DNA of 64,000 nt from Prostheceraeus crozeri (Eukaryota; Platyhelminthes; Polycladida; Euryleptidae), in the NCBI GenBank assembly GCA_907163375.1, contig CAJQUW010005700.1, positions 1 to 64,000 of the forward strand, written 5' to 3'. Position numbers and translations under genes: made by a program. Within the stretch, counting starts at the first letter, position 1. Each line of letters opens with the position of its first letter. The notes under the pieces are model-generated. The model saw only the letters and a program-made list of their open reading frames with translations, had not been told where the DNA came from and did no database searches. Shown here in pieces: positions 13,622 to 46,885 of this stretch.

Positions 13622-14540
13622 AGTAGTAAGTAAAACTCCACTTCTGGACCGCGCAAGATGGCCGCCGTCGCTGACGTCCCCCCTCCCCCCTCTGGAACGG
13701 CAGAGTGTCGTGGTCGGCCGCCGTGGTGCTTCGAGTCTGACTCCCCCCCCCTCTGGAACGCCAGAGTGTCGTGGTGGTCTTGGGCTACCGCCAGGATTTG
13801 TCTTGATGCTATAGTGTGTGATGTTTTTCGTGCTGAATGTTGGGTTGTAAAATGGGCTGTAGCTTCAAAACGAAGCATCGGATTGGAAAACGGATTTCAG
13901 ATTTGGAATCAGCGTGAAATTCTCTATCTGTATGGTGAGTTTCAAGGCAATCGGCGAGAAAAAATTTTCAACATTTTTCGAAAAAACGACAGAGTTAGAA
14001 TTTGGGACGTTTTGGTGTGTAGCGCCCAAACGAACCATCGGATGTGAAAACGGAGGCCAGATTCGGATTCAGCGTGAAATTCTGCATCGGTATGGTGAAT
14101 TTGAACGCAATCGGAGAGAAAAAATTTTCGCTGACGTCCCCCCCCCCTCGGGAGAGCTCGCTTCGATCTTGGCTTCTAGTGGACGGATTTTGTCGTGCCA
14201 TAGCTCGTTTGAAAGCTAAGAGTGAGACAAATTCAGTGAAACAAACGGCTTGTTCATATCTGTCTTCGTTTAGATGTGAGACGCCATTTAAGATTTTGGG
14301 ACATTGGCGAAAAACGACAGAGTTAGAATTTGGGACGTTTTGGGCTGTAGCGCCCCAACGAAGCATCGGATTGGAAAACGGATTTCAGATTTGGAATCAG
14401 CGTGAAATTCTCTATCTGTATGGTGAGTTTCAAGTCAATCGGAGAGAAAAATTTTCAACATTTTTCGAAAAAACGACAGAATTTTGCGATGGCTGCCTAC
14501 TGTAGAGCCAAAAAGAAGCATCGGATGGGAAAACGGAGGT
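13622..14540 (+). repeat. Left terminal repeat with internal subrepeats
   Basis: The terminal 370 bp match the right end in inverted orientation. Just inside the end lie GC-rich blocks with two copies of CCTCTGGAACG and runs of C. A unit of about 157 bp follows, marked by CATCGGAT at about 13878, 14036, 14363 and 14520, the middle spacing being a double unit that also contains a second copy of the GCTGACGTCCCCCC block. The right arm has lost 481 bp here, consistent with recombination between these subrepeats. Open frames in this region on both strands come from the repeats and are not genes. Confidence 0.85.
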
Positions 14541-15455
14541 CAGATTCGGATTCAGCGTCAAATTCTACATGGAAATGATGTATTTCCAGCTCAATCGGAG
14601 CACTAGAACCGGAGATAGACGGGTTTTGAGTGTTTGGATGATGGGTATTACGTCATCAGCTGATCGCCACACACTATATAAGCTGGGAACCGACAGAGAC
14701 TTGTCATTCAGACGAGAGATTGTCAACGGTAAGTCGTCTCTCTGAGCTCCGATGATAGCATCGGACATTCCAAATTCCGGGTTTCTGTAAGAAACCGACT
14801 TAGAAAATTTCATTGCTGATATCAGCTAAGGCGTCAGACTTAGAGGTTCGCCAGGAGATGGCCTTCGTCTCCAGGCCATAAAAGACTCCAAAACTTTAAA
14901 GGCTTGTAACTTTGCTTCTACAAGTCCGTTTGACTTGATTCAAAAAAGGTTCGGTCGCTATTGACCTGCCCTAAGTGACAGATTACTTATAAAATTTCAT
15001 AAGTAGTGCTAAAAAGTTGAAAAATTTAAATTCACTAGTTTTGGAGGTTTTCTGGGGTTTTCGACCCTGCTGAAGTCAATGAAAGCATTTTTAATGATGT
15101 CTGAGCCAGTCTTTTCATGGTATAAGCGGCTTTTCACTGAAAGCGAGCAAGACACGGAGAGTTTTGCTGTAATATTCCACTGACAGGGTGTTCCTTCGGG
15201 ACAGCGGACGATGCCGTAGTGATAAGTGTGGCAAGGGAGTGTGTCATAGTTTAGACCGTAACCGCTGGGACAACTCATGTCTCATGTTGGGCATTTGACA
15301 CAGTTCTCAACGTAGCACTTTGAACGCCAATCGGTTGAGTCTTAGCTATCTTGTCATGGGTGGCCTCTAAACATCTCCATTGCAAAACGCTGGTGAATCA
15401 GGCTCTCTACGGCTTGCTATCAAGCTGCTCAAAGTCTGTCAACCTCTTACCAACT
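14541..15455 (-). pseudogene. Outermost arm region with decayed reading frames (left)
   Basis: Minus-strand open frames at 14565-14813 (82 codons) and 15009-15278 (89 codons) recur in the right arm at 46175-46423 and 45710-45979, but since whole arms are nearly identical this is not evidence of coding. The 15009-15278 frame is the more protein-like: it opens MSCPSGYGLN and has Cys spaced like a small cysteine-rich extracellular module, and in the same frame just upstream, past a stop, further Cys residues follow the same style. I read it as the tail of a broken cysteine-rich gene. No family can be assigned; the remainder shows many stops. Confidence 0.35.
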
Positions 15456-15973
15456 CTACAGGTTTTCATGTCTGGCGAATACTATCATTAAGTTGAATCT
15501 GCTATCAGTCAACTTGAACGTTGCAAATGAAGTTCGGTGTAATACTTCCTTTCGACGGGCGTTCCTGTAAAGGGCGGCGGTGAAACCCGTAGCTATGTAT
15601 ACCGCAAGGGACATTCGGTAATGGTCAATCTTGTTAAACCTCTCTGCATCATGTTTGCAAGTGATTGCCTCTGTCTCAACGTAGTATGCATTCGCGCCAG
15701 GGCGACATTTAGCCAGCTGTCGAAGGTTGCCTTATAAACTATCCATTGCATACGTTATGAGAACCATGAGTTCTACCTGTCTCTATCAATGAGATGAATT
15801 GATGAATGGAATGAAATGGGAGGACACTCAAGCGCCACACGCAACATAACACACTTCTCTCTTCCGTAGTCTAACAAGCTCTTTACACATGGATCGCAGT
15901 CGTTTGCTATCCCTGTATCAGAAGTGTAAGCTATCTTATATTTATTTAACACTATTTCATCTACCATCATCAC
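15456..15973 (-). pseudogene. Decayed unidentified gene Y, left arm
   Basis: An open frame starts at 15973 (MMMVDEIVLNKY) and ends after 66 residues; past one or two breaks another stop-free stretch of about 90 residues follows down to a stop at 15456, containing CRPGANAYYVETEAITC and a region rich in Tyr, Arg and Lys. Composition looks like real coding sequence interrupted by frameshifts, running outward from the divergent promoter region. I do not recognise the family. In the right arm the 5' end is missing because of the 449-bp deletion. Function unknown; a Polinton accessory gene or a captured host gene are both possible. Confidence 0.4.
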
Positions 15974-16117
15974 CCATATGAAATGTTATAAGATTTACAA
16001 GTTAAACTAAGCGTGCTACTATTTCCAAATGAAAAAGTATACATGGTTAAATCATCCACTGAAGCCCCATTCAAGTAAGTCAGTATGAAAGCAAAGATAA
16101 TACGAAATAAAAATTTA

Positions 16118-16572
16118 TTATGACATGTATTTCAAAAGGTCTTCATCGTCAATATCGTCCCAGAGTCTGCCTTCACACAGATCACAAAAACAGTTCACTT
16201 GCTTCAATCGTTCTTCTACCGCGAGCCTCCCTTTGTCGATGTACTCCCACTCCGCCATAGTTCGTGGCTGGGAGTTAGGGGTGTACCATCCCATAATTGA
16301 TGGAGGAATTTGGTGCTGGTGATCTCCATCACATCATCAGTATCGTACTGCAGATACTTCCATCGTATGCCTGTTAGGTCGGGACACTCCTTCTCACATA
16401 CACTCTCCTCTTCGTCATCCGCTGGTAATGACAACTTTCTAATGTTGTCGAGTCGGTATAATTTCTCCACCTTCCCCTTCGTTGGAGCGTTTGGTGCAAC
16501 GAGCGCCTTTGGCGATGAGCATGGAGAAGAGAACTCCAATTTGTGTTCGATGTTTTTGGAGGGCTTGTCATG
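16118..16572 (-). pseudogene. Decayed unidentified gene X with acidic CxxC tail (left arm)
   Basis: On the minus strand, directly behind the divergent promoter, an open frame (also readable from an upstream ATG at 16632) carries KLYRLDNIRKLSLPADDEEE and runs to a tryptophan-rich stretch. The likely C-terminal part is in another frame: it includes WYTPNSQPRTMAEWEYIDKG, a CFCDLCEG cluster and a strongly acidic end (WDDIDDEDLLKYMS), and stops at 16118-16120, followed by TAATAAA. The two halves overlap near 16320-16345, so one frameshift breaks the gene. The ATG at 16571 starts a third frame, so the true start is uncertain. Not recognised; the CxxC pattern hints at a metal-binding site. Right-arm copy has only the N-terminal half. 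Confidence 0.45.
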
Positions 16573-16860
16573 TTGACTGTGAATAATGACTTTGAAATGT
16601 TTTCTAATTCTTAAGTATAAACAAGCAACCAATCAGAATGAACAGCCAATGAATGATGAATATGAAAGTATATATGCAAAGTGACATTCGTGTCATTTCA
16701 CTCTGTCTTTGAGACGTATAAGTGAAGTGTTCTCTAGCGAATTCTATATTTGAGGCGTACAAGTGAACTGCTCTCTCGTGAATTCCAAATTTGAGACGTA
16801 TTATTTGAGTGAAGTCTCTATCTTGTTGAAGTATCAACCTTAAACTTGATTTCGTTGAAA
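16573..16860. promoter_or_regulatory. Divergent promoter region with three imperfect repeats (left arm)
   Basis: This gap separates gene X (minus) from the polymerase gene (plus). It contains a TATA-like AAGTATATATGC near 16670 and then three imperfect copies of a 41-44-bp motif starting TTTGAGACGTATAAGTGAAG at about 16707, 16750 and 16791, with CTCTAGCGAATTC or CTCTCGTGAATTCC in the first two. Position and repeated motif suggest binding sites of an element-encoded or host regulator. The mirror copy is at 44577-44864. Confidence 0.5.
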
Positions 16861-17033
16861 TGGTAAGTTGAAAATTTCTTCACTCATCTCCCTCAAACGT
16901 GTGGCTAATAGCATCTTCCTCAATTTCAGGCATCAACTTCATCACCAACGCCCTCCCTTCTCGAGGAAAGTTTAGAGTTGTTGAGTCAAAGTAGGTTGTA
17001 ACAATACACTGAGACTTAAACAGAGATGACAGA

Positions 17034-20000
17034 ATGATTTCTCTTTCAGGTGATGTGAGTTCCAGCTCAGGACTCTCGCGACAAGGCAACGAGTGGGAAT
17101 GTGCCGACTGCGGACATATGTTTACAAGGAAGCACAGTCTCCTTCGACACATCAAACAACGTGTGTGTCAACGCAAAGCGGCATCAATCTCCGGAGGTGA
17201 AGTTGATTCTGACTATGACATCTCCTTTCCTTGCGATTTGTGCCCTCTTTCTTTTGATAGTCACTTTCAGCGATCTTCGCACAGACTTCAACACACACAT
17301 GCAAATGATCACTACACCAACGGTACCTCTACCATCTCCCTCATTAATGTTTCACATAATAATTTAGTACGCGACTACTGCATGGAGTCCAATACTCAAA
17401 TAGTAGATTTTCCTGAGTGGCTCCTTCAAAATTCTAACATTATCGAAGCGCTCTTCAACAATTTAGACAATTTTAGAATGAAGGCGCTCATCTACCTTAA
17501 ACTAAAATATATTAAAATAGATTTTCAAACGGGTCAAGTGACGGAGAGAATACAGTTTCATGTTCCTTCCTCTTCCGCAACCGAAGTTGTAGACTGCGAG
17601 TCTTGGCTAAATTTTCACATTCAATGTTTAAAATCAAATGTAGATAAATTCAATCAGCGCGACAGCGCTCTCATTTTTGATGGTGTGGACTCAGCCATAT
17701 TCAAAATTTCCCTATTAGAAAGTCATGCAGCTCGAGGCACATTTAAACTACCAAAAACGTTGTATAATAAGAAAGCTGTCATCAATGTCGATTGTAAATC
17801 ACAGTGTTTCAAATATGCAGTCCTATCCATCCTTCACTATAATGATATCAACGCGCATCGAGATCGCACCTATAGCTATAGACAGTGGGAGGATGAACTA
17901 GATAGACTTTGAAGGTTGTGATAGTGACAACATGAAAATCAAAGATGTAGAAACGTTCGAAAAACATAATCAGATTAAAATTGTCGTTCACGTGTGGGAG
18001 AAGGGGTTGAAGGGTGCCCGCTATAATTCACGTTCAACTTGTTATGAACGTGTAGTCAACCTCTTATTAGTAAAACAAGATGATAGCGAGGAATGGCACT
18101 ACTGTGGTATTCCCAAAATCTCTCGCTGTACACTCACTTGGGGCACTCTAAAAGAGGTGAACATTTTGTATGCGACCGCTGCATCCGCTCCTTTTGGAGT
18201 AAAGATAAATTTGAAACTCACTATGAATGGTGCAAGCGAGGTAAATTACAAATGGAACGCATGCCCAAAGATAAAATATTTTCACATAGGGATAATGGTG
18301 ACGAATTAAGTCCCCTGCGTATCATTTACGCAGACATAGAATGCTACATTGATGATATCATCCACAAACCAGCAGCCATATCCTGCTATGAAGTATGGCA
18401 TGACCACTTTAGGAATAGACAAAACAAAATGCATACTTGGCAAGGTGAAGATTGTATTTCAAAATTTCTAGAATTTCTCGATAAAGCTGCTAAATTTCAA
18501 CAATCATATGATTCACAATTGCAGCGTAAGTCACTACATATGTCAGATGAAGACAAACAGAAATTTGAAAGTTGCACATCGTGCCCTAAATGTCATAAAA
18601 CGTTTGATGACGATAAAATTAAGAAAGTGCGTGATCATGATCACATCACTGGTAAATTTAGAAACGCACTCTGCTCCAAATGTAACTTTTCACTTAGGTT
18701 GAGACGTCGTGTACTACCCGTCATTTTTCATAACTTTAAGGGCTATGACAGTCATATGCTCATAAAAGGAGGGTTGAGCCAGATGAAATCGTGGCAGCTC
18801 AATGTTATAGCACAAACGAGAGAAAAATTCATGGCAATGACAGCAAAAGTACCAGTAGATAAAACTAAAGAAAATAAGACAGTCTTCTTCGAAATAAAAT
18901 TTTTAGATTCATTTCAATTCATGTCAGCGTCACTAGCTTCTCTCGTTCGAAATCTCAAGTTTCTTCCCCATAGTCAAACTTTGAAGAAACACTATCCAAA
19001 CTTAACGGATGACATGATCACTCGCAAAGGAGTCTTTCCCTATGCGTATTTTAGCTCAATGTCTAAACTAAATGAAACAACCCTTCCTTCCATTGACAAA
19101 TTCAAAAACGATTTGACGGGTGAAGATTGTCCAGTAGAGGACTATGAACATGCTCAAGAGGCATGGTTAAAATTTAATTGTAAAACGTTTGGCGATTATA
19201 TGATCACTTACTTGGAATTAGATGTCATTTTGCTGGCTGATGTCTTTCAGGAATTTCGACGAGTGGCATTAGAAGAAGATAAGTTAGATCCCGTCCACTT
19301 TGTCAGTCTGCCAGCCATGTCATTTAAGTCTGCTTTTAAAATGACTGGTGAGACCATTCATCTCTTACAAGATCCAGAGATGTATAATTTATTTGAGCGA
19401 GGAATTCGCGGTGGTCTCACATTTGTAAATAAACATAGGTTAAAATCTGAAACAGTAGGTGATGATCATATCCACCTAAAGTACTATGACCAAAATAATT
19501 TATATGGCAGTTCACTGTCTAAACCACTACCTCATTCCGAGTTTAGTTGGTTAAAACAAGATGAGCTTGAGTATTACTCCAACCCTTCAAGCATACTGAA
19601 GATTCCAGATGAAGGTGATTGGGGATATTATTTTGAAGTGGATTTGATTTATCCAAATAGTATTAAAAATAAAACTGCTGATTTCCCACTCGCACCTGAA
19701 TCTGGTGAAGTGACTGAAGATATGTTTTCACCATTCATGTCACAATTTCATAATAACTTAACAGAGTGTGGACAGCCAAGGTACAAACCATGCCGCAAAC
19801 TTTTACTCACCCAATATGATAAGTAAAAAATTATCTCGTACACTTCTGCATACTAAAATTCTATTTAGAAATGGGCATGCTTCTAAAGTCAGTTCACCGC
19901 ATTATCAAATTTAGACAGAAAGCCTTCCTCAAACCCTACATAGATAGTAACAGTCAAAAACGTGCACTAGCCCAAAATAATTTTGAAAAAGATTTTTATA

Positions 20001-20839
20001 AATATAAGAATAATAGTCTTTTCGGAAAGACCATGGAGGATGTTAGAAAACGCATAAACTACAAACTAGTCACTGATGATCAAAAATATCACAAATTGAC
20101 CTCATCACCTCTTTTCATTGATAGAGACATTATCGATGAGGATCTTGTAGGTGTTAAAATGATAAAATCTGAAGTTGAGTTGTGCAAGCCCATCTATATT
20201 GGCCAAGCTGTACTAGATTACTCTAAGCTTGAAATGTACCAACTCTTTTATAAAATGCTAAAACCATGTCCTCTCGTAAAAGAGGTTCGTTTGTTGGGTG
20301 GTGATACAGATAGTTTCTTCTTAGGTATTACCACTCAAAAAGATTTAAATTTTAATGAAGTAGCTAAGTCATTAGAAAAATATTTCAACACATCTAACTA
20401 CAATCCCGCTCATCCACTCTTTTCCATACAGAATAAAGCCAAACTTGGTTGTTTTAAGGATGAAACAGCAGGAAAGGAAATAGATGAAATGATTCTCCTC
20501 CGCCCTAAAATGTATTCCATGAAATTAAAAGAATGTGCAGATAGCATTAAGCGTGCTAAAGGAATATCAAAATCAATTGTCCAAAACATGAAACATCGGT
20601 CCTATAAGAAGGCCTATAAAAATAAAAATATAACGTTTGTCAATATCACAATCTTAAAATCTCAAGTTCATACTGTGAAAACGTACACATTTAAGAAACG
20701 AGCGCTTTCTGCATGGGAGGATAAGAGGTGTTGGATAGGACATAACACATCTCTTCCACATGGACATCCTGATACAAACATACCTCCACCCAAAAGAATA
20801 AAACTCACGCTACCACATTCAGGAGATGTATTGACATAA
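17034..20839 (+). pseudogene. Polinton-type DNA polymerase B, left-arm copy (broken)
   Basis: Protein-primed family B DNA polymerase with proofreading exonuclease, of the Pfam DNA_pol_B_2 type found in Polintons and many invertebrate genomes. Seen here: N-terminal C2H2-like fingers (CADCGHMF...H...C and CDLCPLSF...H...H) and the family's KKAVINVDCKSQC region at 17034-17912. A segment of about 200 bp then reads only in the +1 frame (to about 18110). The main part 18093-19826 has a third finger, exonuclease motif I (DIE), a recombination-endonuclease-VII-like insert (CPKC, HDHITGK, CSKCN), exonuclease motifs II and III, and polymerase motif A (YDQNNLYG). After a 2-bp insertion and stop at about 19823, motif B (NNSLFGK), motif C (GGDTDSFF) and the ALSAWEDKRCW tail lie in 19871-20839. 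The frame change near 17900 and its reversal near 18110 also occur in the right arm; the break at 19823 is private to this copy. Probably non-functional. Confidence 0.9.
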
Positions 20840-21018: not shown

Positions 21019-21307
21019 TCACTTTGTTTTCCGAAACACTAAAGTTACGAGGGATTTAGTATCTTTCACATGGATGCACTCTTGTAAACCATTGGTAATT
21101 TTGATAGAAATAGAGGGTATAGTTTGTTTGACGACGGGGTGATAGAAAATAGATTCAAACATCTCGACTATTCCATATGAAGCGTCTTTATCATGAATGA
21201 AATCACGTAAAATGTATTCTTTTTTCTCACCAACAGAAATAGGTAGAATCAAATCACTTTGGGGCGATCATATCTTTTTCAAATGACTGTGGAACATTGA
21301 TTTCCAT
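21019..21307 (-). pseudogene. Small convergent ORF (about 95 codons, frameshifted), left arm
   Basis: A minus-strand ATG at 21305-21307 opens MEINVPQSFEKDMIAPK and hits a stop; one frame over, a 76-residue stop-free stretch (ILPISVGEKKEYILRDFI...VTLVFRKTK) runs to 21019. All three copies in the element have the same break, so either it predates the duplications or the real product starts differently. The predicted product is a small mixed alpha/beta-like protein with no signal peptide or membrane segment. I do not recognise it; it lies between the polymerase 3' end and the satellite and reads away from the satellite. Confidence 0.45.
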
Positions 21308-21344: not shown

Positions 21345-23075
21345 GATTTACTAGTTTGCAAGTTAAACTAAGCGTTCTATTATTTGTAAATGAAAGATAT
21401 AGTTTCAACAGTTTACAGATTACAAAATAAAGTTTCAATAGTGTTTATGTTAAAAATAAAGTTTAAGCTGTTTGTGTGTTAGAAATAGAATAGTTTCAAC
21501 AGTTTGTCGATTAAAAATAAAGTTTCAACAGTGTGTACGTTAGAAATAAAGTTTCATCTGTTTGTAAAATGAGATTGTAGGATTTACTAGTTTGCAAGTT
21601 AGACTAAGCGTTCTACTATTTGTAAACGAAAGATATAGTTTCAACAGTTTACAGATTAAAAATAAAGTTTCAACAGTGTGTACGTTAGAAATAAAGTTTT
21701 AGGCGTTTGTGCGTTAGAAATAAAATAAAGTTTCAACCGTTTACAAGTTAAAAATGAAGTCTCAATAGTGTGTATGTTAAGAATAAAGTTCTATCTGTTT
21801 ATATGTTAGAAATAAAACTGAAGCTTCACCAGTTTACAAGTTAAGAATAAAGTTTTATCTGCTTGTATGTCAGAATGAAATAAAGTTTCACCACCTTAAA
21901 AATAAAGTTTCAATAATGTGTACGTTAGAAACAAAGTTTCAATAGTTTACAAGTTAAGAATAAAGTTTCAATAGTGTGTATGTTAGAAATAAAGTTCTAT
22001 CTGTTTATATGTTAGAAATAAAATGAAGTTTCACCAGTTTACAAGTTAAGAATAAATTTTATCTGCTTGTATGTTAGAAATGAAATAAAGTTTCACCAGT
22101 TTACAAGTTAAAAATAAAGTTTCAGTAGTGTGTACGTTAGAAATAAAGTTTCAATAGTGTGTATGTTAAGAATAAAGTTTTATCTGTTTGTATGTTAGAA
22201 ATAAAACAAAGTTTCAACCGTTTACAAGTTAAAAATAAAGTTTCAATAGTGTGTATGTTAAGAATAAAGTTCTATCTGTTTGTATGTTAGAAATAAAATG
22301 AAGTTTCATCAGTTTACAAGTTAAAAATGAAGTTTTATCTGTTTGTATGTTAGAAATAAAACAAAGTTTCAACCGTTAACAAGTTAAAAATAAAGTTTCA
22401 ATAGTTTGCAAGTTAAAACTAATGTTTCAATAGTGCGTATGTTAAGAATAAAGTTTTATCTGTTTGTATGTTAGAAATAGAATGAAGCTTCACCAGTTTA
22501 CAAGTTAAGAATAAAGTTTTATCAGCTTGTATGTTAGAAATAAAATGAAGTTTCAACAGTTTACAAATTAAAAATAAAGTTTCAATAGTGTGTACGTTAG
22601 AAATAAAGTTTCAACCGTTTACAAGTTAAAAATAAAGTTTCAACAGTGTCTACGTTAGAAATAAAGTTTATCTGTTTGTAAAGTACGATCGTAGGATTTA
22701 CTAGTTTGCAAGTTAGACTCAGCATTCTACTAGTTGTAAATGAAAAATATCGTTTCAACAGTTTACAGATTAAAATAAAGTTTCAATAGTGTGTATGATG
22801 GAAATAAAGTTTAAGCGCTTTGTGCGTTAGAAATAAAGTTTCAGCCGTTTACAAGTAAAAAATAAAGTTTCAACAGTGTGTACGTTAGAAATAAAGTTTT
22901 AGCTGTTTATATTTTAGAAACAAAATAAAGTTTCAACAGTTTACAAGTTGAAAAATAAAGTTTCAACAGTGTGTACGTTAGAAATAAATGAAAGTAAGAA
23001 CTTCATCGTATGAGTATTCAAAGCATGTTTTGTAAATCAAATGTGTGTAGTCCTGACATGATAGAATCGCGTTAG
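21345..23075 (+). repeat. AT-rich satellite, left arm (AATAAAGTTTC repeats)
   Basis: Imperfect tandem units of 28-40 bp, each built as GTTAGAAATAAAGTTTCAACAG or a variant with ACAAGTTAAAAATAAAG. The block GCAAGTTAGACTAAGCGTTCTA appears three times (about 21357, 21592, 22706), marking a larger repeat. Nearly every unit contains AATAAA on the strand transcribed by the left polymerase gene. At 22987-23074 a non-satellite segment (AATGAAAGTAAGAACTTCAT...) duplicates the palindrome shoulder. Confidence 0.93.
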
Positions 23076-23581
23076 AAATAAAGTTTCAGCCGTTTACAAG
23101 TTAAAAATAGAGTTTGAACAGTGTGTACGTTAGAAATAAAGTTTTAGCTTTTTATATGTTAGAAACAAAATAAAGTTTCAACAGTTTTACAAGTTGAAAA
23201 ATAAAGTTTCAACAGTGTGTACGTTAGAAATAAATGAAAGTAAGAACTTCATCGTATAAGTATTCAAAGCATGTTTTGTAAATCAAATGTGTGTAGTCCT
23301 GACATGATAGAATCAAGCTTGACAAACGCGTTTGTCAAGTTCATTTGATTCTATCATGTCAGGACTACACACATTTGATTTACAAAACATGCTTTGAATA
23401 CTTATACGATGAAGTTATTACTTTCATTTATTTCTAACGTACACACTGTTGAAACTTTATTTTTCAACTTGTAAAACTGTTGAAACTTTATTTTGTTTCT
23501 AACATATAAAAAGCTAAAACTTTATTTCTAACGTACACACTGTTCAAACTCTATTTTTAACTTGTAAACGGTTGAAACTTT
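23076..23581. repeat. Central palindrome of the element
   Basis: Two arms of about 252 bp face each other with no spacer; the centre is the CG step of GACAAACGCGTTTGTC at 23321-23336, between bases 23328 and 23329. Pairing extends through the segment containing CTGACATGATAGAATC and into satellite units on both sides, with only scattered mismatches (for example TCAAGCTTGAC against GTCAAGTTCATTTGA). Beyond 23076 and 23581 the two sides are still satellite but no longer in register. This is the fold axis of the inverted dimer. Confidence 0.88.
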
Positions 23582-35500: not shown

Positions 35501-35765
35501 TAGAACGCTTAGTCTAACTTGCAAACTAGTAAATCCTACAATCTCATTTTACAAACAGATGAAACTTTATTTCTAACGTACACACTGTTGAAACTTTATT
35601 TTTAATCGACAAACTGTTGAAACTATTCTATTTCTAACACACAAACAGCTTAAACTTTATTTTTAACATAAACACTATTGAAACTTTATTTTGTAATCTG
35701 TAAACTGTTGAAACTATATCTTTCATTTACAAATAATAGAACGCTTAGTTTAACTTGCAAACTAG
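23582..35765 (-). repeat. Higher-order satellite, right arm (155-bp unit)
   Basis: About 12.2 kb of tandem repeat. The commonest unit is 155 bp made of five sub-blocks (29, 35, 28, 35 and 28 bp), for example TGAAACTTTATTTTTAAC, TTTGTTTTATTTCTAACATA and AGAACTTTATTCTTAACATA as block starts; three consecutive unit starts are at 23941, 24096 and 24251. Units are nearly identical. At intervals a different block containing CATTAGTTTTAACTTGCAAA is inserted: its TAG is at 23765, 24781, 26366, 27692, 29429, 31628, 33827 and 34786. Two successive spacings are exactly 2,199 bp, showing a higher-order unit. The array is the inverted counterpart of the left-arm satellite, greatly expanded; AATAAA lies on the minus strand, the strand of the right-arm polymerases. 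Confidence 0.95.
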
Positions 35766-38727
35766 TAAATCTTGTTCGTCATCGAATCTAACTGTTTAAA
35801 TCTTCATCATGGAAATCAATGTTCCACAGTCATTTGAAAAAGATATGATCGCCCCAAAGTGATTTGATTCTACCTATTTCTGTTGGTGAGAAAAAAGAAT
35901 ACATTTTACGTGATTTCATTCATGATAAAGACGCTTCATATGGAATAGTCGAGATGTTTGAATCTATTTTCTATCACCCCGTCGTCAAACAAACTATACC
36001 CTCTATTTCTATCAAAATTACCAATGGTTTACAAGAGTGCATCCATGTGAAAGATACTAAATCCCTCGTAACTTTAGTGTTTCGGAAAACAAAGTGATGT
36101 CATTGTGATATGTTTATTGAAATAAAAATATGCGAATGAAAAAGTCTTTTCACAGATATAGGGGGAATTGGCTAACTGTAGGCATATATTCACAAGGAAG
36201 AAACGATCTCATGCGATACATAAAACAACCATGTATATCTACAAAAAGCAACATCAAAATACTGAGTTAAAGTTGATTATGTCAATACATCTCCTGAATG
36301 TGGTAGCGTGAGTTTTATTCTTTTGGGTGGAGGTATGTTTGTATCAGGATGTCCATGTGGAAGAGATGTGTTATGTCCTATCCAACACCTCTTATCCTCC
36401 CATGCAGAAAGCGCTCGTTTCTTAAATGTGTACGTTTTCACAGTATGAACTTGTGATTTTAAGATTGTCATATTGACAAACGTTATATTTTTATTTTTAT
36501 AGGCCTTCTTATAGGACCGATGTTTCATGTTTTGGACAATTGATTTTGATATTCCTTTAGCACGCTTAATACTATCTGCACATTCTTTTAATTTCATGGA
36601 ATACATTTTAGGGCGGAGGAGAATCATTTCATCTATTTCCTTTCCTGCTGTTTCATCCTTAAAACAACCAAGTTTGGCTTTATTCTGTATGGAAAAGAGT
36701 GGATGAGCGGGATTGTAGTTAGATGTGTTGAAATATTTTTCTAATGACTTAGCTACTTCATTAAAATTTAAATCTTTTTGAGTGGTAATACCTAAGAAGA
36801 AACTATCTGTATCACCACCCAACAAACGAACCTCTTTTACGAGAGGACATGGTTTTAGCATTTTATAAAAGAGTTGGTACATTTCAAGCTTAGAGTAATC
36901 TAGTACAGCTTGGCCAAAATAGATGGGCTTGCACAACTCAACTTCAGATTTTATCATTTTAACACCTACAAGATCCTCATCGATAATGTCTCTATCAATG
37001 AAAAGAGGTGATGAGGTCAATTTGTGATATTTTTGATCATCAGTGACTAGTTTGTAGTTTATGCGTTTTCTAACATCCTCCATGGTCTTTCCGAAAAGAC
37101 TATTATTCTTATATTTATAAAAATCTGTTTCAAAATTATTTTGGGCTAGTGCACGTTTTTGACTGTTACTATCTATGTAGGGTTTGAGGAAGGCTTTCTG
37201 TCTAAATTTGATAATGCGGTGAACTGACTTTAGAAGCATGCCCATTTCTAAATAGAATTTTAGTATGCAGAAGTGTACGAGATAATTTTTCTTATCATAT
37301 TGGGTGAGTAAAAGTTTGCGGCATGGTTTGTACCTTGGCTGTCCACACTCTGTTAAGTTATTATGAAATTGTGACATGAATGGTGAAAACATATCTTCAG
37401 TCACTTCACCAGATTCAGGTGCGAGTGGGAAATCAGCAGTTTTATTTTTAATACTATTTGGATAAATCAAATCCACTTCAAAATAATATCCCCAATCACC
37501 TTCATCTGGAATCTTCAGTATGCTTGAAGGGTTGGAGTAATACTCAAGCTCATCTTGTTTTAACCAACTAAACTCGGAATGAGGTAGTGGTTTAGACAGT
37601 GAACTGCCATATAAATTATTTTGGTCATAGTACTTTAGGTCGATATGATCATCACCTACTGTTTTAGATTTTAACCTATGTTTATTTACAAATGTGAGAC
37701 CACCGCGAATTCCTCGCTCAAATAAATTATACATCTCTGGATCTTGTAAGAGATGAATGGTCTCACCAGTCATTTTAAAAGCAGACTTAAATGACATGGC
37801 TGGCAGACTGACAAAGTGGACGGGATCTAACTTATCTTCTTCTAATGCCACTCGTCGAAATTCCTGAAAGACATCAGCCAGCAAAATGACATCTAATTCC
37901 AAGTAAGTGATCATATAATCGCCAAAAGTTTTACAATTAAATTTTAACCATGCCTCTTGAGCATGTTCATAGTCCTCTACTGGACAATCTTCACCCGTCA
38001 AATCGTTTTTGAATTTGTCAATGGAAGGAAGGGTTGTTTCATTTAGTTTAGACATTGAGCTAAAATACACATAGGGAAAGACTCCTTTGCGAGTGATCAT
38101 GTCATCCGTTAAGTTTGGATAGTGTTTCTTCAAAGTTTGACTATGGGGAAGAAACTTGAGATTTCGAACGAGAGAAGCTAGTGACGCTGACATGAATTGA
38201 AATGAATCTAAAAATTTTATTTCGAAGAAGACTGTCTTATTTTCTTTAGTTTTATCTACTGGTACTTTTGCTGTCATTGCCATGAATTTTTCTCTCGTTT
38301 GTGCTATAACATTGAGCTGCCACGATTTCATCTGGCTCAACCCTCCTTTTATGAGCATATGACTGTCATAGCCCTTAAAGTTATGAAAAATGACGGGTAG
38401 TACACGACGTCTCAACCTAAGTGAAAAGTTACATTTGGAGCAGAGTGCGTTTCTAAATTTACCAGTGATGTGATCATGATCACGCACTTTCTTAATTTTA
38501 TCGTCATCAAACGTTTTATGACATTTAGGGCACGATGTGCAACTTTCAAATTTCTGTTTGTCTTCATCTGACATATGTAGTGACTTACGCTGCAATTGTG
38601 AATCATATGATCGTTGAAATTTAGCAGCTTTATCGAGAAATTCTAGAAATTTTGAAATACAATCTTCACCTTGCCAAGTATGCATTTTGTTTTGTCTATT
38701 CCTAAAGTGGTCATGCCATACTTCATG
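34558..38727. repeat. Tandemly duplicated segment (inner copy, about 4.2 kb)
   Basis: The segment from the satellite at about 34558 through the small ORF and most of the polymerase to 38727 is repeated directly at 38728-43051. The offset is 4,169 bp in the satellite part and 4,323 bp in the coding part, a difference of one satellite unit. At 38727 polymerase sequence (CCATACTTCAT) joins satellite (GATGAAACTTC) with essentially no homology. Only a few base differences separate the copies (for example AAGTGATGTC versus AAGTGAAGTC), so the duplication is very recent, or a misassembly. Confidence 0.8.
35809..36097 (+). pseudogene. Small convergent ORF, inner right-arm copy
   Basis: Copy of the small ORF described in the left arm: ATG at 35809-35811, stop TGA at 35860-35862, then the 76-residue stretch one frame over to 36097. 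The protein is identical to the left-arm copy, including the break. Confidence 0.45.
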
Positions 38728-38757
38728 ATGAAACTTCATTTTATTTCTAACATACAA
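36277..38757 (-). pseudogene. DNA polymerase B, inner right-arm copy, N-terminally truncated
   Basis: The reading frame is open for 826 codons and contains the endonuclease-VII-like insert, exonuclease motifs II and III, polymerase motifs A, B and C and the C-terminal ALSAWEDKRCW region. It lacks the zinc fingers and exonuclease motif I because the duplication breakpoint at 38727 fuses residue EVWHDHF to satellite. The apparent first residues (MYVRNKMKFHH) are translated satellite, not polymerase. Without motif I (DxE) and the upstream domains the product would lack proofreading and has no promoter of its own apart from whatever the satellite supplies. One residue differs from the outer copy (KFQRSY versus KFQQSY). 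Confidence 0.88.
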
Positions 38758-40090
38758 ACAGATAGAACTTTATTCTTAACATACACACTACTGAAACTTT
38801 ATTTTTAATTTGTAAACTGTTGAAACTTTGTTTTATTTCTAACATACAAGCTGATAAAACTTTATTCTTAACTTGTAAACTGGTGAAGCTTCATTCTATT
38901 TCTAACATACAAACAGATAAAACTTTATTCTTAACATACGCACTATTGAAACATTAGTTTTAACTTGCAAACTATTGAAACTTTATTTTTAACTTGTTAA
39001 CGGTTGAAACTTTGTTTTATTTCTAACATACAAACAGATAAAACTTCATTTTTAACTTGTAAACTGATGAAACTTCATTTTATTTCTAACATACAAACAG
39101 ATAGAACTTTATTCTTAACATACACACTACTGAAACTTTATTTTTAACTTGTAAACGGTTGAAACTTTGTTTTATTTCTAACATACAAACAGATAAAACT
39201 TCATTTTTAACTTGTAAACTGATGAAACTTCATTTTATTTCTAACATACAAACAGATAGAACTTTATTCTTAACATACACACTATTGAAACTTTATTTCT
39301 AACGTACACACTATTGAAACTTTATTTTTAACTTGTAAACTGGTGAAACTTTATTTCATTTCTAACATACAAGCAAATAAAATTTATTCTTAACTTGTAA
39401 ACTGGTGAAACTTCATTTTATTTCTAACATATAAACAGATAGAACTTTATTTCTAACATACACACTATTGAAACTTTATTCTTAACTTGTAAACTATTGA
39501 AACTTTGTTTCTAACGTACACATTATTGAAACTTTATTTTTAAGGTGGTGAAACTTTATTTCATTCTGACATACAAGCAGATAAAACTTTATTCTTAACT
39601 TGTAAACTGGTGAAGCTTCAGTTTTATTTCTAACATATAAACAGATAGAACTTTATTCTTAACATACACACTATTGAAACTTCATTTTTAACTTGTAAAC
39701 GGTTGAAACTTTATTTTATTTCTAACGCACAAACGCCTAAAACTTTATTTCTAACGTACACACTGTTGAAACTTTATTTTTAATCTGTAAACTGTTGAAA
39801 CTATATCTTTCGTTTACAAATAGTAGAACGCTTAGTCTAACTTGCAAACTAGTAAATCCTACAATCTCATTTTACAAACAGATGAAACTTTATTTCTAAC
39901 GTACACACTGTTGAAACTTTATTTTTAATCGACAAACTGTTGAAACTATTCTATTTCTAACACACAAACAGCTTAAACTTTATTTTTAACATAAACACTA
40001 TTGAAACTTTATTTTGTAATCTGTAAACTGTTGAAACTATATCTTTCATTTACAAATAATAGAACGCTTAGTTTAACTTGCAAACTAGTA
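38728..40090 (-). repeat. AT-rich satellite between the two right-arm polymerases
   Basis: Same satellite family as the main array, beginning at the fusion with polymerase sequence and including one CATTAGTTTTAAC block (TAG at 38955). The distal part, from about 39660, mirrors the left-arm satellite edge, with the GCTTAGTCTAACTTGCAAACTA block. Confidence 0.92.
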
Positions 40091-40131: not shown

Positions 40132-40420
40132 ATGGAAATCAATGTTCCACAGTCATTTGAAAAAGATATGATCGCCCCAAAGTGATTTGATTCTACCTAT
40201 TTCTGTTGGTGAGAAAAAAGAATACATTTTATGTGATTTCATTCATGATAAAGACGCTTCATATGGAATAGTCGAGATGTTTGAATCTATTTTCTATCAC
40301 CCCGTCGTCAAACAAACTATACCCTCTATTTCTATCAAAATTACCAATGGTTTACAAGAGTGCATCCATGTGAAAGATACTAAATCCCTCGTAACTTTAG
40401 TGTTTCGGAAAACAAAGTGA
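40132..40420 (+). pseudogene. Small convergent ORF, outer right-arm copy
   Basis: Third copy of the small ORF: ATG at 40132, the same early stop, and the same stop-free stretch in the neighbouring frame to 40420. One residue differs from the other copies (EYILCDFI instead of EYILRDFI). It converges on the outer polymerase gene, with AATAAA signals in the gap. Confidence 0.45.
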
Positions 40421-40599: not shown

Positions 40600-43344
40600 T
40601 TATGTCAATACATCTCCTGAATGTGGTAGCGTGAGTTTTATTCTTTTGGGTGGAGGTATGTTTGTATCAGGATGTCCATGTGGAAGAGATGTGTTATGTC
40701 CTATCCAACACCTCTTATCCTCCCATGCAGAAAGCGCTCGTTTCTTAAATGTGTACGTTTTCACAGTATGAACTTGTGATTTTAAGATTGTCATATTGAC
40801 AAACGTTATATTTTTATTTTTATAGGCCTTCTTATAGGACCGATGTTTCATGTTTTGGACAATTGATTTTGATATTCCTTTAGCACGCTTAATACTGTCT
40901 GCACATTCTTTTAATTTCATGGAATACATTTTAGGGCGGAGGAGAATCATTTCATCTATTTCCTTTCCTGCTGTTTCATCCTTAAAACAACCAAGTTTGG
41001 CTTTATTCTGTATGGAAAAGAGTGGATGAGCGGGATTGTAGTTAGATGTGTTGAAATATTTTTCTAATGACTTAGCTACTTCATTAAAATTTAAATCTTT
41101 TTGAGTGGTAATACCTAAGAAGAAACTATCTGTATCACCACCCAACAAACGAACCTCTTTTACGAGAGGACATGGTTTTAGCATTTTATAAAAGAGTTGG
41201 TACATTTCAAGCTTAGAGTAATCTAGTACAGCTTGGCCAAAATAGATGGGCTTGCACAACTCAACTTCAGATTTTATCATTTTAACACCTACAAGATCCT
41301 CATCGATAATGTCTCTATCAATGAAAAGAGGTGATGAGGTCAATTTGTGATATTTTTGATCATCAGTGACTAGTTTGTAGTTTATGCGTTTTCTAACATC
41401 CTCCATGGTCTTTCCGAAAAGACTATTATTCTTATATTTATAAAAATCTGTTTCAAAATTATTTTGGGCTAGTGCACGTTTTTGACTGTTACTATCTATG
41501 TAGGGTTTGAGGAAGGCTTTCTGTCTAAATTTGATAATGCGGTGAACTGACTTTAGAAGCATGCCCATTTCTAAATAGAATTTTAGTATGCAGAAGTGTA
41601 CGAGATAATTTTTCTTATCATATTGGGTGAGTAAAAGTTTGCGGCATGGTTTGTACCTTGGCTGTCCACACTCTGTTAAGTTATTATGAAATTGTGACAT
41701 GAATGGTGAAAACATATCTTCAGTCACTTCACCAGATTCAGGTGCGAGTGGGAAATCAGCAGTTTTATTTTTAATACTATTTGGATAAATCAAATCCACT
41801 TCAAAATAATATCCCCAATCACCTTCATCTGGAATCTTCAGTATGCTTGAAGGGTTGGAGTAATACTCAAGCTCATCTTGTTTTAACCAACTAAACTCGG
41901 AATGAGGTAGTGGTTTAGACAGTGAACTGCCATATAAATTATTTTGGTCATAGTACTTTAGGTCGATATGATCATCACCTACTGTTTTAGATTTTAACCT
42001 ATGTTTATTTACAAATGTGAGACCACCGCGAATTCCTCGCTCAAATAAATTATACATCTCTGGATCTTGTAAGAGATGAATGGTCTCACCAGTCATTTTA
42101 AAAGCAGACTTAAATGACATGGCTGGCAGACTGACAAAGTGGACGGGATCTAACTTATCTTCTTCTAATGCCACTCGTCGAAATTCCTGAAAGACATCAG
42201 CCAGCAAAATGACATCTAATTCCAAGTAAGTGATCATATAATCGCCAAAAGTTTTACAATTAAATTTTAACCATGCCTCTTGAGCATGTTCATAGTCCTC
42301 TACTGGACAATCTTCACCCGTCAAATCGTTTTTGAATTTGTCAATGGAAGGAAGGGTTGTTTCATTTAGTTTAGACATTGAGCTAAAATACACATAGGGA
42401 AAGACTCCTTTGCGAGTGATCATGTCATCCGTTAAGTTTGGATAGTGTTTCTTCAAAGTTTGACTATGGGGAAGAAACTTGAGATTTCGAACGAGAGAAG
42501 CTAGTGACGCTGACATGAATTGAAATGAATCTAAAAATTTTATTTCGAAGAAGACTGTCTTATTTTCTTTAGTTTTATCTACTGGTACTTTTGCTGTCAT
42601 TGCCATGAATTTTTCTCTCGTTTGTGCTATAACATTGAGCTGCCACGATTTCATCTGGCTCAACCCTCCTTTTATGAGCATATGACTGTCATAGCCCTTA
42701 AAGTTATGAAAAATGACGGGTAGTACACGACGTCTCAACCTAAGTGAAAAGTTACATTTGGAGCAGAGTGCGTTTCTAAATTTACCAGTGATGTGATCAT
42801 GATCACGCACTTTCTTAATTTTATCGTCATCAAACGTTTTATGACATTTAGGGCACGATGTGCAACTTTCAAATTTCTGTTTGTCTTCATCTGACATATG
42901 TAGTGACTTACGCTGCAATTGTGAATCATATGATTGTTGAAATTTAGCAGCTTTATCGAGAAATTCTAGAAATTTTGAAATACAATCTTCACCTTGCCAA
43001 GTATGCATTTTGTTTTGTCTATTCCTAAAGTGGTCATGCCATACTTCATAGCAGGATATGGCTGCTGGTTTGTGGATGATATCATCAATGTAGCATTCTA
43101 TGTCTGCGTAAATGATACGCAGGGGACTTAATTCGTCACCATTATCCCTATGTGAAAATATTTTATCTTTGGGCATGCGTTCCATTTGTAATTTACCTCG
43201 CTTGCACCATTCATAGTGAGTTTCAAATTTATCTTTACTCCAAAAGGAGCGGATGCAGCGGTCGCATACAAAATGTTCACCTCTTTTAGAGTGCCCCAAG
43301 TGAGTGTACAGCGAGAGATTTTGGGAATACCACAGTAGTGCCAT
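40600..43344 (-). CDS. Polinton-type DNA polymerase B, outer right-arm copy (best preserved)
   Basis: An uninterrupted 914-codon frame. Domains by residue: C2HC finger about 27-47 (CDRC...H...C); exonuclease motif I at 81-83 (DIE); endonuclease-VII-like zinc module 161-197 (CPKC, DHDHITG, CSKCN); exonuclease motif II about 213-220 (HNFKGYDS); motif III about 373-385 (YLELDVILLADVF); polymerase motif A 465-472 (YDQNNLYG, Asp466); motif B 638-645 (KNNSLFGK); motif C 735-741 (GGDTDSF, Asp737 and Asp739); C-terminal ALSAWEDKRCW. All catalytic residues that I can check are present. It makes DNA in the nucleus or in a virus-like replication centre, probably primed by a terminal protein. The first Met here is internal: the true N-terminus lies in 43525-44403 and a bridging piece in another frame, so whether a complete protein can be made is doubtful. 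Confidence 0.85.
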   Translation of the reverse strand: MALLWYSQNLSLYTHLGHSKRGEHFVCDRCIRSFWSKDKFETHYEWCKRGKLQMERMPKDKIFSHRDNGDELSPLRIIYADIECYIDDIIHKPAAISCYEVWHDHFRNRQNKMHTWQGEDCISKFLEFLDKAAKFQQSYDSQLQRKSLHMSDEDKQKFESCTSCPKCHKTFDDDKIKKVRDHDHITGKFRNALCSKCNFSLRLRRRVLPVIFHNFKGYDSHMLIKGGLSQMKSWQLNVIAQTREKFMAMTAKVPVDKTKENKTVFFEIKFLDSFQFMSASLASLVRNLKFLPHSQTLKKHYPNLTDDMITRKGVFPYVYFSSMSKLNETTLPSIDKFKNDLTGEDCPVEDYEHAQEAWLKFNCKTFGDYMITYLELDVILLADVFQEFRRVALEEDKLDPVHFVSLPAMSFKSAFKMTGETIHLLQDPEMYNLFERGIRGGLTFVNKHRLKSKTVGDDHIDLKYYDQNNLYGSSLSKPLPHSEFSWLKQDELEYYSNPSSILKIPDEGDWGYYFEVDLIYPNSIKNKTADFPLAPESGEVTEDMFSPFMSQFHNNLTECGQPRYKPCRKLLLTQYDKKNYLVHFCILKFYLEMGMLLKSVHRIIKFRQKAFLKPYIDSNSQKRALAQNNFETDFYKYKNNSLFGKTMEDVRKRINYKLVTDDQKYHKLTSSPLFIDRDIIDEDLVGVKMIKSEVELCKPIYFGQAVLDYSKLEMYQLFYKMLKPCPLVKEVRLLGGDTDSFFLGITTQKDLNFNEVAKSLEKYFNTSNYNPAHPLFSIQNKAKLGCFKDETAGKEIDEMILLRPKMYSMKLKECADSIKRAKGISKSIVQNMKHRSYKKAYKNKNITFVNMTILKSQVHTVKTYTFKKRALSAWEDKRCWIGHNTSLPHGHPDTNIPPPKRIKLTLPHSGDVLT

Positions 43345-43524
43345 TCCTCGCTATCATCTTGTTTTACTAATAAGAGGTTGACTACACGTTCATAACAAGT
43401 TGAACGTGAATTATAGCGGGCACCCTTCAACCCCTTCTCCCACACGTGAACGACAATTTTAATCTGATTATGTTTTTCGAACGTTTCTACATCTTTGATT
43501 TTCATGTTGTCACTATCACAACCT

Positions 43525-44403
43525 TCAAAGTCTATCTAGTTCATCCTCCCACTGTCTATAGCTATAGGTGCGATCTCGATGCGCGTTGATATCATTATAG
43601 TGAAGGATGGATAGGACTGCATATTTGAAACACTGTGATTTACAATCGACATTGATGACAGCTTTCTTATTATACAACGTTTTTGGTAGTTTAAATGTGC
43701 CTCGAGCTGCATGACTTTCTAATAGGGAAATTTTGAATATGGCTGAGTCCACACCATCAAAAATGAGAGCGCTGTCGCGCTGATTGAATTTATCTACATT
43801 TGATTTTAAACATTGAATGTGAAAATTTAGCCAAGACTCGCAGTCTACAACTTCGGTTGCGGAAGAGGAAGGAACATGAAACTGTATTCTCTCCGTCACT
43901 TGACCCGTTTGAAAATCTATTTTAATATATTTTAGTTTAAGGTAGATGAGCGCCTTCATTCTAAAATTGTCTAAATTGTTGAAGAGCGCTTCGATAATGT
44001 TAGAATTTTGAAGGAGCCACTCAGGAAAATCTACTATTTGAGTATTGGACTCCATGCAGTAGTCGCGTACTAAATTATTATGTGAAACATTAATGAGGGA
44101 GATGGTAGAGGTACCTTTGGTGTAGTGATCATTTGCATGTGTGTGTTGAAGTCTGTGCGAAGATCGCTGAAAGTGACTATCAAAAGAAAGAGGGCACAAA
44201 TCGCAAGGAAAGGAGATGTCATAGTCAGAATCAACTTCACCTCCGGAGATTGATGCCGCTTTGCGTTGACACACACGTTGTTTGATGTGTCGAAGGAGAC
44301 TGTGCTTCCTTGTAAACATATGTCCGCAGTCGGCACATTCCCACTCGTTGCCTTGTCGCGAGAGTCCTGAGCTGGAACTCACATCACCTGAAAGAGAAAT
44401 CAT
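43525..44403 (-). pseudogene. N-terminal zinc-finger part of the outer right-arm polymerase
   Basis: A 292-codon frame with two C2H2-like fingers (CADCGHMF and CDLCPLSF) followed by an acidic and hydrophobic region ending in the family-typical KKAVINVDCKSQC and YSYRQWEDELD. It stops at 43525, and the next ~200 bp continue the protein only in another frame (43128-43505 open frame) before the main 914-codon frame takes over near 43330. The identical arrangement in the left arm (one residue different, HYTKGTS versus HYTNGTS) shows that the frame changes are older than the inversion or have been copied by conversion. Confidence 0.8.
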
Positions 44404-44576: not shown

Positions 44577-44864
44577 TTTCAACGAAATCAAGTTTAAGGT
44601 TGATACTTCAACAAGATAGAGACTTCACTCAAATAATACGTCTCAAATTTGGAATTCACGAGAGAGCAGTTCACTTGTACGCCTCAAATATAGAATTCGC
44701 TAGAGAACACTTCACTTATACGTCTCAAAGACAGAGTGAAATGACACGAATGTCACTTTGCATATATACTTTCATATTCATCATTCATTGGCTGTTCATT
44801 CTGATTGGTTGCTTGTTTATACTTAAGAATTAGAAAACATTTCAAAGTCATTATTCACAGTCAA
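44577..44864. promoter_or_regulatory. Divergent promoter region, right arm
   Basis: Mirror copy of 16573-16860: three imperfect copies of the motif with ACTTCACTTATACGTCTCAAA and a TATA-like GCATATATACTT. It lies between the polymerase gene (minus) and the gene X remnant (plus). Confidence 0.5.
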
Positions 44865-45215
44865 CATGACAAGCCCTCTAAAAACATCGAACACAAATTG
44901 GAGTTCTCTTCTCCATGCTCATCGCCAAAGGCGCTCGTTGCACCAAACGCTCCAACGAAGGGGAAGGTGGAGAAATTATACCGACTCGACAACATTAGAA
45001 AGTTGTCATTACCAGCGGATGACGAAGAGGAGAGTGTATGTGAGAAGGAGTGTCCCGACCTAACAGGCATACGATGGATAGCAATCGACTGCGATCCATG
45101 TGTAAAGAGCTTGTTAGACTACGGAAGAGAGAAGTGTGTTATGTTGCGTGTGGCGCGTGAGTGTCCTCCCATTTCATTCCATTCATCAATTCATCTCATT
45201 GATAGAGACAGGTAG
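44865..45215 (+). pseudogene. Gene X / gene Y deletion fusion, right arm
   Basis: The N-terminal half of gene X (KLYRLDNIRKLSLPADDEEE) runs to CGATGG at about 45076, where 449 bp present in the left arm are missing. It then continues in frame into the 5' part of gene Y (DCDPCVKSLLDYGREKC) and stops at 45215. The junction bases are shared by both sides (GGATA), so it looks like a microhomology-mediated deletion. The fusion frame is a by-product. Confidence 0.6.
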
Positions 45216-46174
45216 AACTCATGGTTCTCATAACGTATGCAATGGATAGTTTATAAGGCAACCTTCGACAGCTGGCTAAATGTCGCCCTGGCGCGAATGC
45301 ATACTACGTTGAGACAGAGGCAATCACTTGCAAACATGATGCAGAGAGGTTTAACAAGATTGACCATTACCGAATGTCCCTTGCGGTATACATAGCTACG
45401 GGTTTCACCGCCGCCCTTTACAGGAACGCCCGTCGAAAGGAAGTATTACACCGAACTTCATTTGCAACGTTCAAGTTGACTGATAGCAGATTCAACTTAA
45501 TGATAGTATTCGCCAGACATGAAAACCTGTAGAGTTGGTAAGAGGTTGACAGACTTTGAGCAGCTTGATAGCAAGCCGTAGAGAGCCTGATTCACCAGCG
45601 TTTTGCAATGGAGATGTTTAGAGGCCACCCATGACAAGATAGCTAAGACTCAACCGATTGGCGTTCAAAGTGCTACGTTGAGAACTGTGTCAAATGCCCA
45701 ACATGAGACATGAGTTGTCCCAGCGGTTACGGTCTAAACTATGACACACTCCCTTGCCACACTTATCACTACGGCATCGTCCGCCGTCCCGAAGGAACAC
45801 CCTGTCAGTGGAATATTACAGCAAAACTCTCCGTGTCTTGCTCGCTTTCAGTGAAAAGCCGCTTATACCATGAAAAGACTGGCTCAGACATCATTAAAAA
45901 TGCTTTCATTGACTTCAGCAGGGTCGAAAACCCCAGAAAACCTCCAAAACTAGTGAATTTAAATTTTTCAACTTTTTAGCACTACTTATGAAATTTTATA
46001 AGTAATCTGTCACTTAGGGCAGGTCAATAGCGACCGAACCTTTTTTGAATCAAGTCAAACGGACTTGTAGAAGCAAAGTTACAAGCCTTTAAAGTTTTGG
46101 AGTCTTTTATGGCCTGGAGACGAAGGCCATCTCCTGGCGAACCTCTAAGTCTGACGCCTTAGCTGATATCAGCA
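45216..46174 (+). pseudogene. Decayed gene Y remainder and cysteine-rich remnant, right arm
   Basis: Mirror of left 14814-15772. The second open stretch of gene Y (CRPGANAYYVETEAITC) runs to a stop at 45530-45532; the cysteine-rich frame is at 45710-45979, with GIVRRPEG here against GIVRCPEG on the left. The 46175-46423 frame follows. No recognised family. Confidence 0.35.
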
Positions 46175-46423
46175 ATGAAATTTTCTAAGTCGGTTTCTTA
46201 CAGAAACCCGGAATTTGGAATGTCCGATGCTATCATCGGAGCTCAGAGAGACGACTTACCGTTGACAATCTCTCGTCTGAATGACAAGTCTCTGTCGGTT
46301 CCCAGCTTATATAGTGTGTGGCGATCAGCTGATGACGTAATACCCATCATCCAAACACTCAAAACCCGTCTATCTCCGGTTCTAGTGCTCCGATTGAGCT
46401 GGAAATACATCATTTCCATGTAG

Positions 46424-46885
46424 AATTTGACGCTGAATCCGAATCTGACCTCCGTTTTCCCATCCGATGCTTCTTTTTGGCTCTACAGTAGGCAGCCATC
46501 GCAAAATTCTAACTCGTTTTTTCGAAAAATGTTGAAAATTTTTTCTCGCCGATTGCCTTGAAACTCACCATACAGATAGAAAATTTCACGCTGATTCCAA
46601 ATCTGAAATCCGTTTTCCAATCCGATGCTTCGTTTGGGCGCTACAGCCCATTTTACAACCCAACATTCAGCACGAAAAACATCACACACTATAGCCTCAA
46701 GACAAATCCTGGCGGTAGCCCAAGACCACCACGACACTCTGGCGTTCCAGAGGGGGGGAGTCAGACTCGAAGCACCACGGCGGCCGACCACGACACTTTG
46801 CCGTTCCAGAGGGGGGAGGGGGAGGGGGGACGTCAGCGACGGCGGCCATCTTGCGCGGTCCAGAAGTGGAGTTTTACTTACTACT
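46424..46885 (-). repeat. Right terminal repeat
   Basis: Inverted copy of the left terminal region but 481 bp shorter: it keeps the outermost 370 bp or so and the innermost subrepeat, and lacks the region corresponding to about 13990-14475 on the left. It ends ...GGAGTTTTACTTACTACT. The two GC-rich CCAGAGGGGGG blocks are retained. Confidence 0.87.

What the first reader, a model, noticed from the sequence alone, without database searches (positions are those of the whole stretch)
13622..46885. A 33-kb Polinton derivative that is a giant inverted dimer carrying little but DNA polymerase
Seen: AG...CT inverted ends, 6-bp duplication TGCAAT, two mirror-image arms each with an inward-pointing PolB, a spacer-free palindrome in the middle. 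Known: ordinary Polintons are 15-25 kb with one PolB plus integrase, ATPase, protease and capsid genes. Not seen here: any of those other genes. Inference: the element was formed by joining two copies of one Polinton end, as expected from template switching or hairpin resolution in protein-primed replication, and the dimer was then integrated by an integrase supplied in trans, because the duplication flanks the dimer as a whole. A polymerase-plus-terminal-repeat replicon of this shape recalls how bidnaviruses are thought to have taken a Polinton polymerase.
Basis: partly seen in the sequence, partly recalled or inferred. Interest (0 to 1): 0.92.

Follow-up and report, generated by a model that had tools for sequence, protein, structure and literature searches.

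The report
Polinton with two mirror-image polymerase ends

Summary
13,622-46,885 is one insertion: ends AGTAGT...ACTACT, perfect 6-bp duplication TGCAAT, and a paralogous empty site with a single TGCAAT in the same window. The ends match the commonest Maverick/Polinton end motif. Two mirror arms (29 substitutions in 6,841 aligned bases outside the minisatellite) meet at a zero-spacer palindrome centred at 23,328/23,329. Each arm has a small gene, a PolB gene and a short ORF. The PolB fold is protein-primed (phi29-like); its closest viral matches are densovirus-, adintovirus- and bidnavirus-labelled PolBs. None of 50 ORFs scanned hit an integrase, ATPase, protease or capsid family.

The right half holds a 12.3-kb minisatellite and a 4.3-kb tandem duplication with a third PolB fragment. 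Both arms share two PolB frame breaks; a 97% relative lacks one of them. The duplication around the whole does not show that a dimer integrated.

I favour in-place formation: a dead Polinton broke, its far end primed on the near end's repeat and copied that arm to its broken tip. A dimer formed before integration stays possible. Other copies could not be sought: the host-genome search did not complete. Verdict: real, a new variant of a known kind.

The parts
13616..13621 (.). left target-site duplication TGCAAT
   Evidence: single copy in empty-site paralog
46886..46891 (.). right target-site duplication TGCAAT
13622..15918 (+). left outer arm: terminal inverted repeat starting AGTAGT, no recognised gene; has a 485-bp stretch (13,990-14,474) absent on the right
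16121..16632 (-). small gene (145 and 149 aa in two relatives), frame broken in left arm
   Evidence: 138-aa ORF 16216-16632 hits P0121 (95% over 59% of the query) and P0122 (67% over 61%); tblastn in two frames
17034..20839 (+). left-arm PolB gene in four frame pieces (292, 125, 577, 322 aa)
21022..21267 (-). short ORF convergent with PolB, conserved in relative P0123 (93 aa, 86%)
21393..23241 (+). left minisatellite array, units of about 29 bp
   Evidence: 18 forward, 0 reverse exact core words from 21,393 to 23,330
23242..23419 (.). zero-spacer palindrome, axis 23,328/23,329, 22-bp perfect core 23,318-23,339
23420..35715 (-). expanded minisatellite, 12,296 bp, 155-bp and 465-bp higher-order units, opposite orientation
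35716..38726 (-). third, truncated arm fragment with PolB 3' part; with 34,404-35,715 it is the extra unit of a 4.3-kb tandem duplication
38727..40038 (-). right-arm minisatellite
40172..40417 (+). right-arm copy of the short convergent ORF
40600..44403 (-). right-arm PolB gene: 914-aa ORF (40600-43344), 125-aa ORF (43128-43505), 292-aa ORF (43525-44403) in separate frames
   Evidence: fold
44805..45215 (+). right-arm small gene, 3' end lost with a 449-bp segment present at 15,910-16,358 on the left
45069..46885 (-). right outer arm, ends ACTACT
48073..48452 (-). paralogous empty insertion site in the host flank

Best explanation
This is an integrated Polinton (Maverick) derivative in which the PolB end occurs twice, head to head around a zero-spacer palindrome, and the second copy was likely made in place when a broken, probably already dead element was repaired by copying the surviving arm. 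Inferred steps: (1) an ordinary element with PolB near one end integrated and made the TGCAAT duplication. (2) Its PolB frame broke. (3) A double-strand break removed most of the other half but left its terminal repeat attached to the right flank. (4) That repeat annealed to the inverted repeat of the left arm and primed synthesis inward to the arm's broken tip. (5) The new end was joined to the tip it had just copied, which leaves no spacer. (6) Later, the central minisatellite of the right half expanded, a 4.3-kb piece duplicated in tandem, and both arms kept decaying.
Against: No single test separates in-place copying from dimer formation before integration: both give a zero-spacer axis and an outer TSD. 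The outer/inner difference rests on few sites and on a GC-rich, repeat-bearing stretch. P0001 starts where the window's second PolB piece starts, which suggests that its N-terminal part is also separate; if so, copies with a broken PolB may have spread in trans, which weakens the argument that the element was stationary when it duplicated. The original right half is gone, so its gene content is unknown.
Confidence: 0.48

Rival explanations
1. The dimer formed before integration: a linear Polinton DNA that had lost one end was replicated, its two sister broken ends were fused (or a hairpin end was opened), and the symmetrical molecule with two valid ends was integrated by an integrase supplied in trans.
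For: TSD and intact AGTAGT/ACTACT ends flank the whole; zero-spacer axis fits fusion of sister ends; duplicated-end defective genomes are known in other protein-primed linear DNAs such as adenovirus (recalled; no paper on this was among those listed).
Against: Both arms share two PolB frame breaks, so replication as well as integration would need help in trans. Outer ends look more diverged than inner arms (weak). No second dimer is known; the host genome could not be searched.
Confidence: 0.33
2. This Polinton lineage normally has terminal repeats of about 9.7 kb that contain PolB, and only the unique middle has been lost or replaced by minisatellite.
For: The arms behave as terminal repeats and are over 99.5% alike outside the minisatellite (29 substitutions in 6,841 aligned bases).
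Against: Intact vertebrate Mavericks have TIRs of 46-1,447 bp. The zero-spacer axis leaves no room for a former unique middle.
Confidence: 0.09
3. The mirror structure is an assembly or read artefact (fold-back read, false duplication).
For: Fold-back reads give zero-spacer palindromes (recalled). The third fragment differs from the right arm by only 4 of 3,011 bases, which could be a second haplotype joined in tandem.
Against: The two outer flanks are different and are the correct two sides of one empty site; a fold-back read would repeat the left flank. The arms differ by 29 substitutions and 5 indels, including 485 and 449 bp. The artefact remains a real option only for the third fragment and the array length.
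Confidence: 0.05
4. Two separate Polinton insertions, each truncated, lie head to head by chance.
For: Two arms with a PolB each.
Against: One TSD for the pair, the same two frame breaks in both, 0.32% divergence of the inner arms, and an exact mirror axis.
Confidence: 0.02

Closest known systems
Vertebrate Mavericks/Polintons (PMC8097293)
   Same: 5'-(AGT)2//(ACT)2-3' ends, perfect 6-bp TSD, terminal inverted repeats, protein-primed PolB module pointing inward
   Different: 33 kb against 12.7-24.6 kb; mirror arms of 9.7 kb against TIRs of at most 1,447 bp; PolB at both ends; no integrase, ATPase, protease or capsid gene recognised; central minisatellite
Adintoviruses (definition as in PMC11071296, passages seen)
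   Same: PolB fold (A0A8D9PE63, E 4.4e-51); N-terminal piece matches a C2H2 protein of Drosophila-associated adintovirus 2 (E 1.4e-9, TM 0.40 by query length)
   Different: no hexon or integrase recognised
Bidnaviruses (PMC4061559, passages and one section seen)
   Same: PolB of polintovirus type with an N-terminal domain; fold matches to a bidensovirus and a bidnavirus-like PolB (ranks 8 and 10) and to densovirus-labelled ones (ranks 1, 2, 6; rank 1 bears the name structural protein)
   Different: no SF3 helicase or parvovirus-type capsid family hit; integrated and palindromic; ends AGTAGT, not GTGTGTGT
Inverted dimers from origin-dependent inverted-repeat amplification (PMC4689423, passages seen) and breakage-replication/fusion (PMC12807874, abstract seen)
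   Same: inverted copies arise by replication of a DNA end or of hairpin-closed DNA, followed by joining
   Different: host-chromosome events in yeast or human cells, not bounded by transposon ends with a TSD
Adenovirus defective genomes with duplicated ends (recalled; no paper listed)
   Same: one end of a protein-primed linear DNA present twice in mirror image
   Different: episomal viral DNA, not an integrated element

Membership tests
Polinton/Maverick | end motif (AGT)2//(ACT)2 or (AG)3//(CT)3 | tested here: met
   AGTAGT...ACTACT against PMC8097293
Polinton/Maverick | perfect 6-bp target-site duplication | tested here: met
   TGCAAT twice; single in the empty site
Polinton/Maverick | protein-primed family B polymerase | tested here: met
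Polinton/Maverick | retroviral-type integrase | tested here: not met
   no integrase family among Pfam hits (E <= 1) of 50 ORFs of the element, which include the 35 stop-free left-arm ORFs of 50 aa or more outside PolB, one of them as its start-codon part; a 12.7-bit DDE_Tnp_1_3 hit (E 0.13, cut-off 27) at 16377-16610 is noise. Of 69 ORFs in and beside the minisatellite only 4 were scanned; much decayed pieces could be missed
Polinton/Maverick | ATPase, protease, major and minor capsid genes | tested here: not met
   same scans
Polinton/Maverick | two different gene modules, PolB in one and integrase in the other | tested here: not met
   PolB module at both ends
Adintovirus | PolB with N-terminal OTU-like domain | tested here: inconclusive
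   the N-terminal part is split by a frame break; the 292-aa piece was modelled alone and its best viral match is an adintovirus C2H2 protein; the solved-structure look did not settle it
Adintovirus | hexon and integrase | tested here: not met
Bidnavirus | polintovirus-type PolB | tested here: met
   fold match to bidensovirus and bidnavirus-like PolBs, ranks 8 and 10 (E 2.6e-34, 2.5e-32)
Bidnavirus | SF3 helicase and parvovirus-type capsid protein | tested here: not met

The most novel reading that the evidence does not exclude
A PolB-plus-ends inverted dimer is a mobile form in its own right: a Polinton satellite, comparable to a defective-interfering genome, that lost every recognised gene but its polymerase module, gained a second copy of the replication and integration ends, and spreads by using other Polintons' enzymes; such a molecule would be a plausible way by which a polymerase with ready-made ends could pass into viruses of the bidnavirus type.
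Probability: 0.14. Interest if true: 0.85.

Novelty: new variant of a known kind. Interest (0 to 1): 0.52.

Why it matters
Polintons are linear, protein-primed, virus-like elements. A clean case, with TSD, empty site and both ends intact, in which one end has replaced the other in mirror image gives a concrete product for repair or replication models of such elements, and a source of giant palindromes and satellite arrays in genomes. If the same axis turns up at other sites, it would be a moving satellite of Polintons and would make the idea that viruses inherit a polymerase together with its ends directly testable.

Tried and rejected

Paper searches: ten; among the titles and abstract beginnings shown (the lists are capped) none describes a Polinton inverted dimer. 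I saw passages of PMC11071296, PMC12721341, PMC6431247, PMC4028283 and PMC4689423, passages and one section each of PMC4061559 and PMC8097293, and the abstract and outline of PMC12807874. The library holds open-licence papers only.

Full report
What is there. The stretch 13,622-46,885 is a single insertion of 33,264 bp. Its ends read AGTAGT...ACTACT, the first 68 bases are identical at both ends, and TGCAAT stands on both sides. The window itself contains an older, inverted duplicate of the host flank (pieces 78-82% identical, one 48-base piece 94%). In that duplicate, 48,073-48,452, the sequence runs unbroken across the insertion point with a single TGCAAT. The limits and the 6-bp duplication are therefore established, not guessed. 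The end motif (AGT)2//(ACT)2 is the commonest type in vertebrate Mavericks/Polintons, whose intact copies have 6-bp duplications (PMC8097293, passages and one section seen).

Anatomy. The left arm is 13,622-23,328. Going inward it has an outer stretch without recognised genes, a small gene on the minus strand, PolB pointing inward, a short convergent ORF, and a minisatellite of about 29-bp units. At 23,328/23,329 the sequence turns round with no spacer: a palindrome of 95% identity over 23,242-23,419, with a perfect 22-bp core; beyond it, on both sides, comes minisatellite in opposite orientation. The core alone is within reach of chance; the palindrome and the arms are not. The right half repeats the left arm in mirror image: 9,043 of 9,707 left-arm bases are covered, while the 9 other segment pairs gave no such match. 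Two further features make it longer. The minisatellite spans 12,296 bp with 155- and 465-bp higher-order units. A 4.3-kb piece (34,404-38,726) is a tandem duplicate of 38,727-43,049, which adds a third, truncated PolB.

State of decay. In both arms the PolB gene is in pieces with the same two frame breaks near the N-terminal part; the left arm has one more. Unbroken relatives exist (for example P0004 and P0006), and P0001, 97% identical, reads through the second break. Outside the minisatellite the arms differ by 29 substitutions in 6,841 aligned bases and by five indels, the largest 485 and 449 bp. The third fragment agrees with the right arm at 15 of 19 variable columns, so it is a later duplicate of the right arm, or possibly a second haplotype joined by the assembler.

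How it most likely arose. Two routes fit the anatomy. In the first, which I prefer (0.48), an integrated and already broken Polinton suffered a break; the terminal repeat left on the right flank annealed to the repeat of the left arm and copied it to its broken tip, and copy and tip were joined. That keeps the original duplication, explains the zero spacer, and needs no living PolB. In the second (0.33), the dimer formed in linear DNA and was integrated by a foreign integrase. Evidence for the first is modest: shared breaks, and outer ends that differ more than inner arms (6 of 366 against 21 of 6,472; P 0.003 raw, 0.042 with a cluster counted once, 0.13 without it). Against it, P0001 seems to share the first break, so broken copies may have moved in trans. 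The decisive comparison, other copies in the host genome, could not be made: the genome search was busy on nine tries.

What it is and is not. It meets the end, duplication and polymerase features of Polintons and fails the integrase, capsid and two-module features, so it is a defective Polinton derivative, not a complete Polinton, adintovirus or bidnavirus. In ten paper searches (listed under Tried and rejected) no title or abstract beginning shown describes a Polinton of this form, within an open-licence library and capped lists. I rate it a new variant of a known kind: surprising in shape, well bounded, probably dead.

Noticed in passing
window 11989-12764, 13575-13621, 46886-47478, 48073-49020: The host flank is an old, rearranged inverted duplication (pieces 78-82% identical, one short piece 94%) that preserves the empty insertion site.
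   Followed up: partly
window 1-2288: About 2.3 kb of almost pure purine (GA-rich) sequence; GC skew and AT skew near 0.9 in 1-2000.
   Followed up: no
window 58914-59507 (-): Mariner-like transposase piece (HTH_48, E 1.2e-8).
   Followed up: partly
window 63098-63985 (-): Two pieces of a DDE_Tnp_4 (Harbinger-like, name recalled) transposase (E 1.4e-13, and 1.3e-4 below the curated cut-off).
   Followed up: partly
window 57625-58011, 59751-59852, 60201-60588, 9977-10088: Long self-inverted (hairpin) repeats, 68-89% identical to their own reverse complement, possibly small inverted-repeat elements.
   Followed up: no
window 55282-55354 (-): Rfam tRNA match, 42.5 bits.
   Followed up: no
window 13853-14116 and 14341-14600: The outer arm holds its own diverged direct repeats (85%); the right arm seems to have only one such copy, so the 485-bp difference may be recombination between them.
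   Followed up: partly
window 15994-16041 and 21355-21401: A 48-base stretch resembling the edge of the minisatellite (85%) also lies on the other side of the gene block, within the segment missing from the right arm.
   Followed up: no
window 40600-43344 (-), residues about 141-199: This polymerase family carries an Endonuclease VII-like domain between the first two exonuclease motifs: all 23 aligned members hit it; its role is unknown to me.
   Followed up: partly
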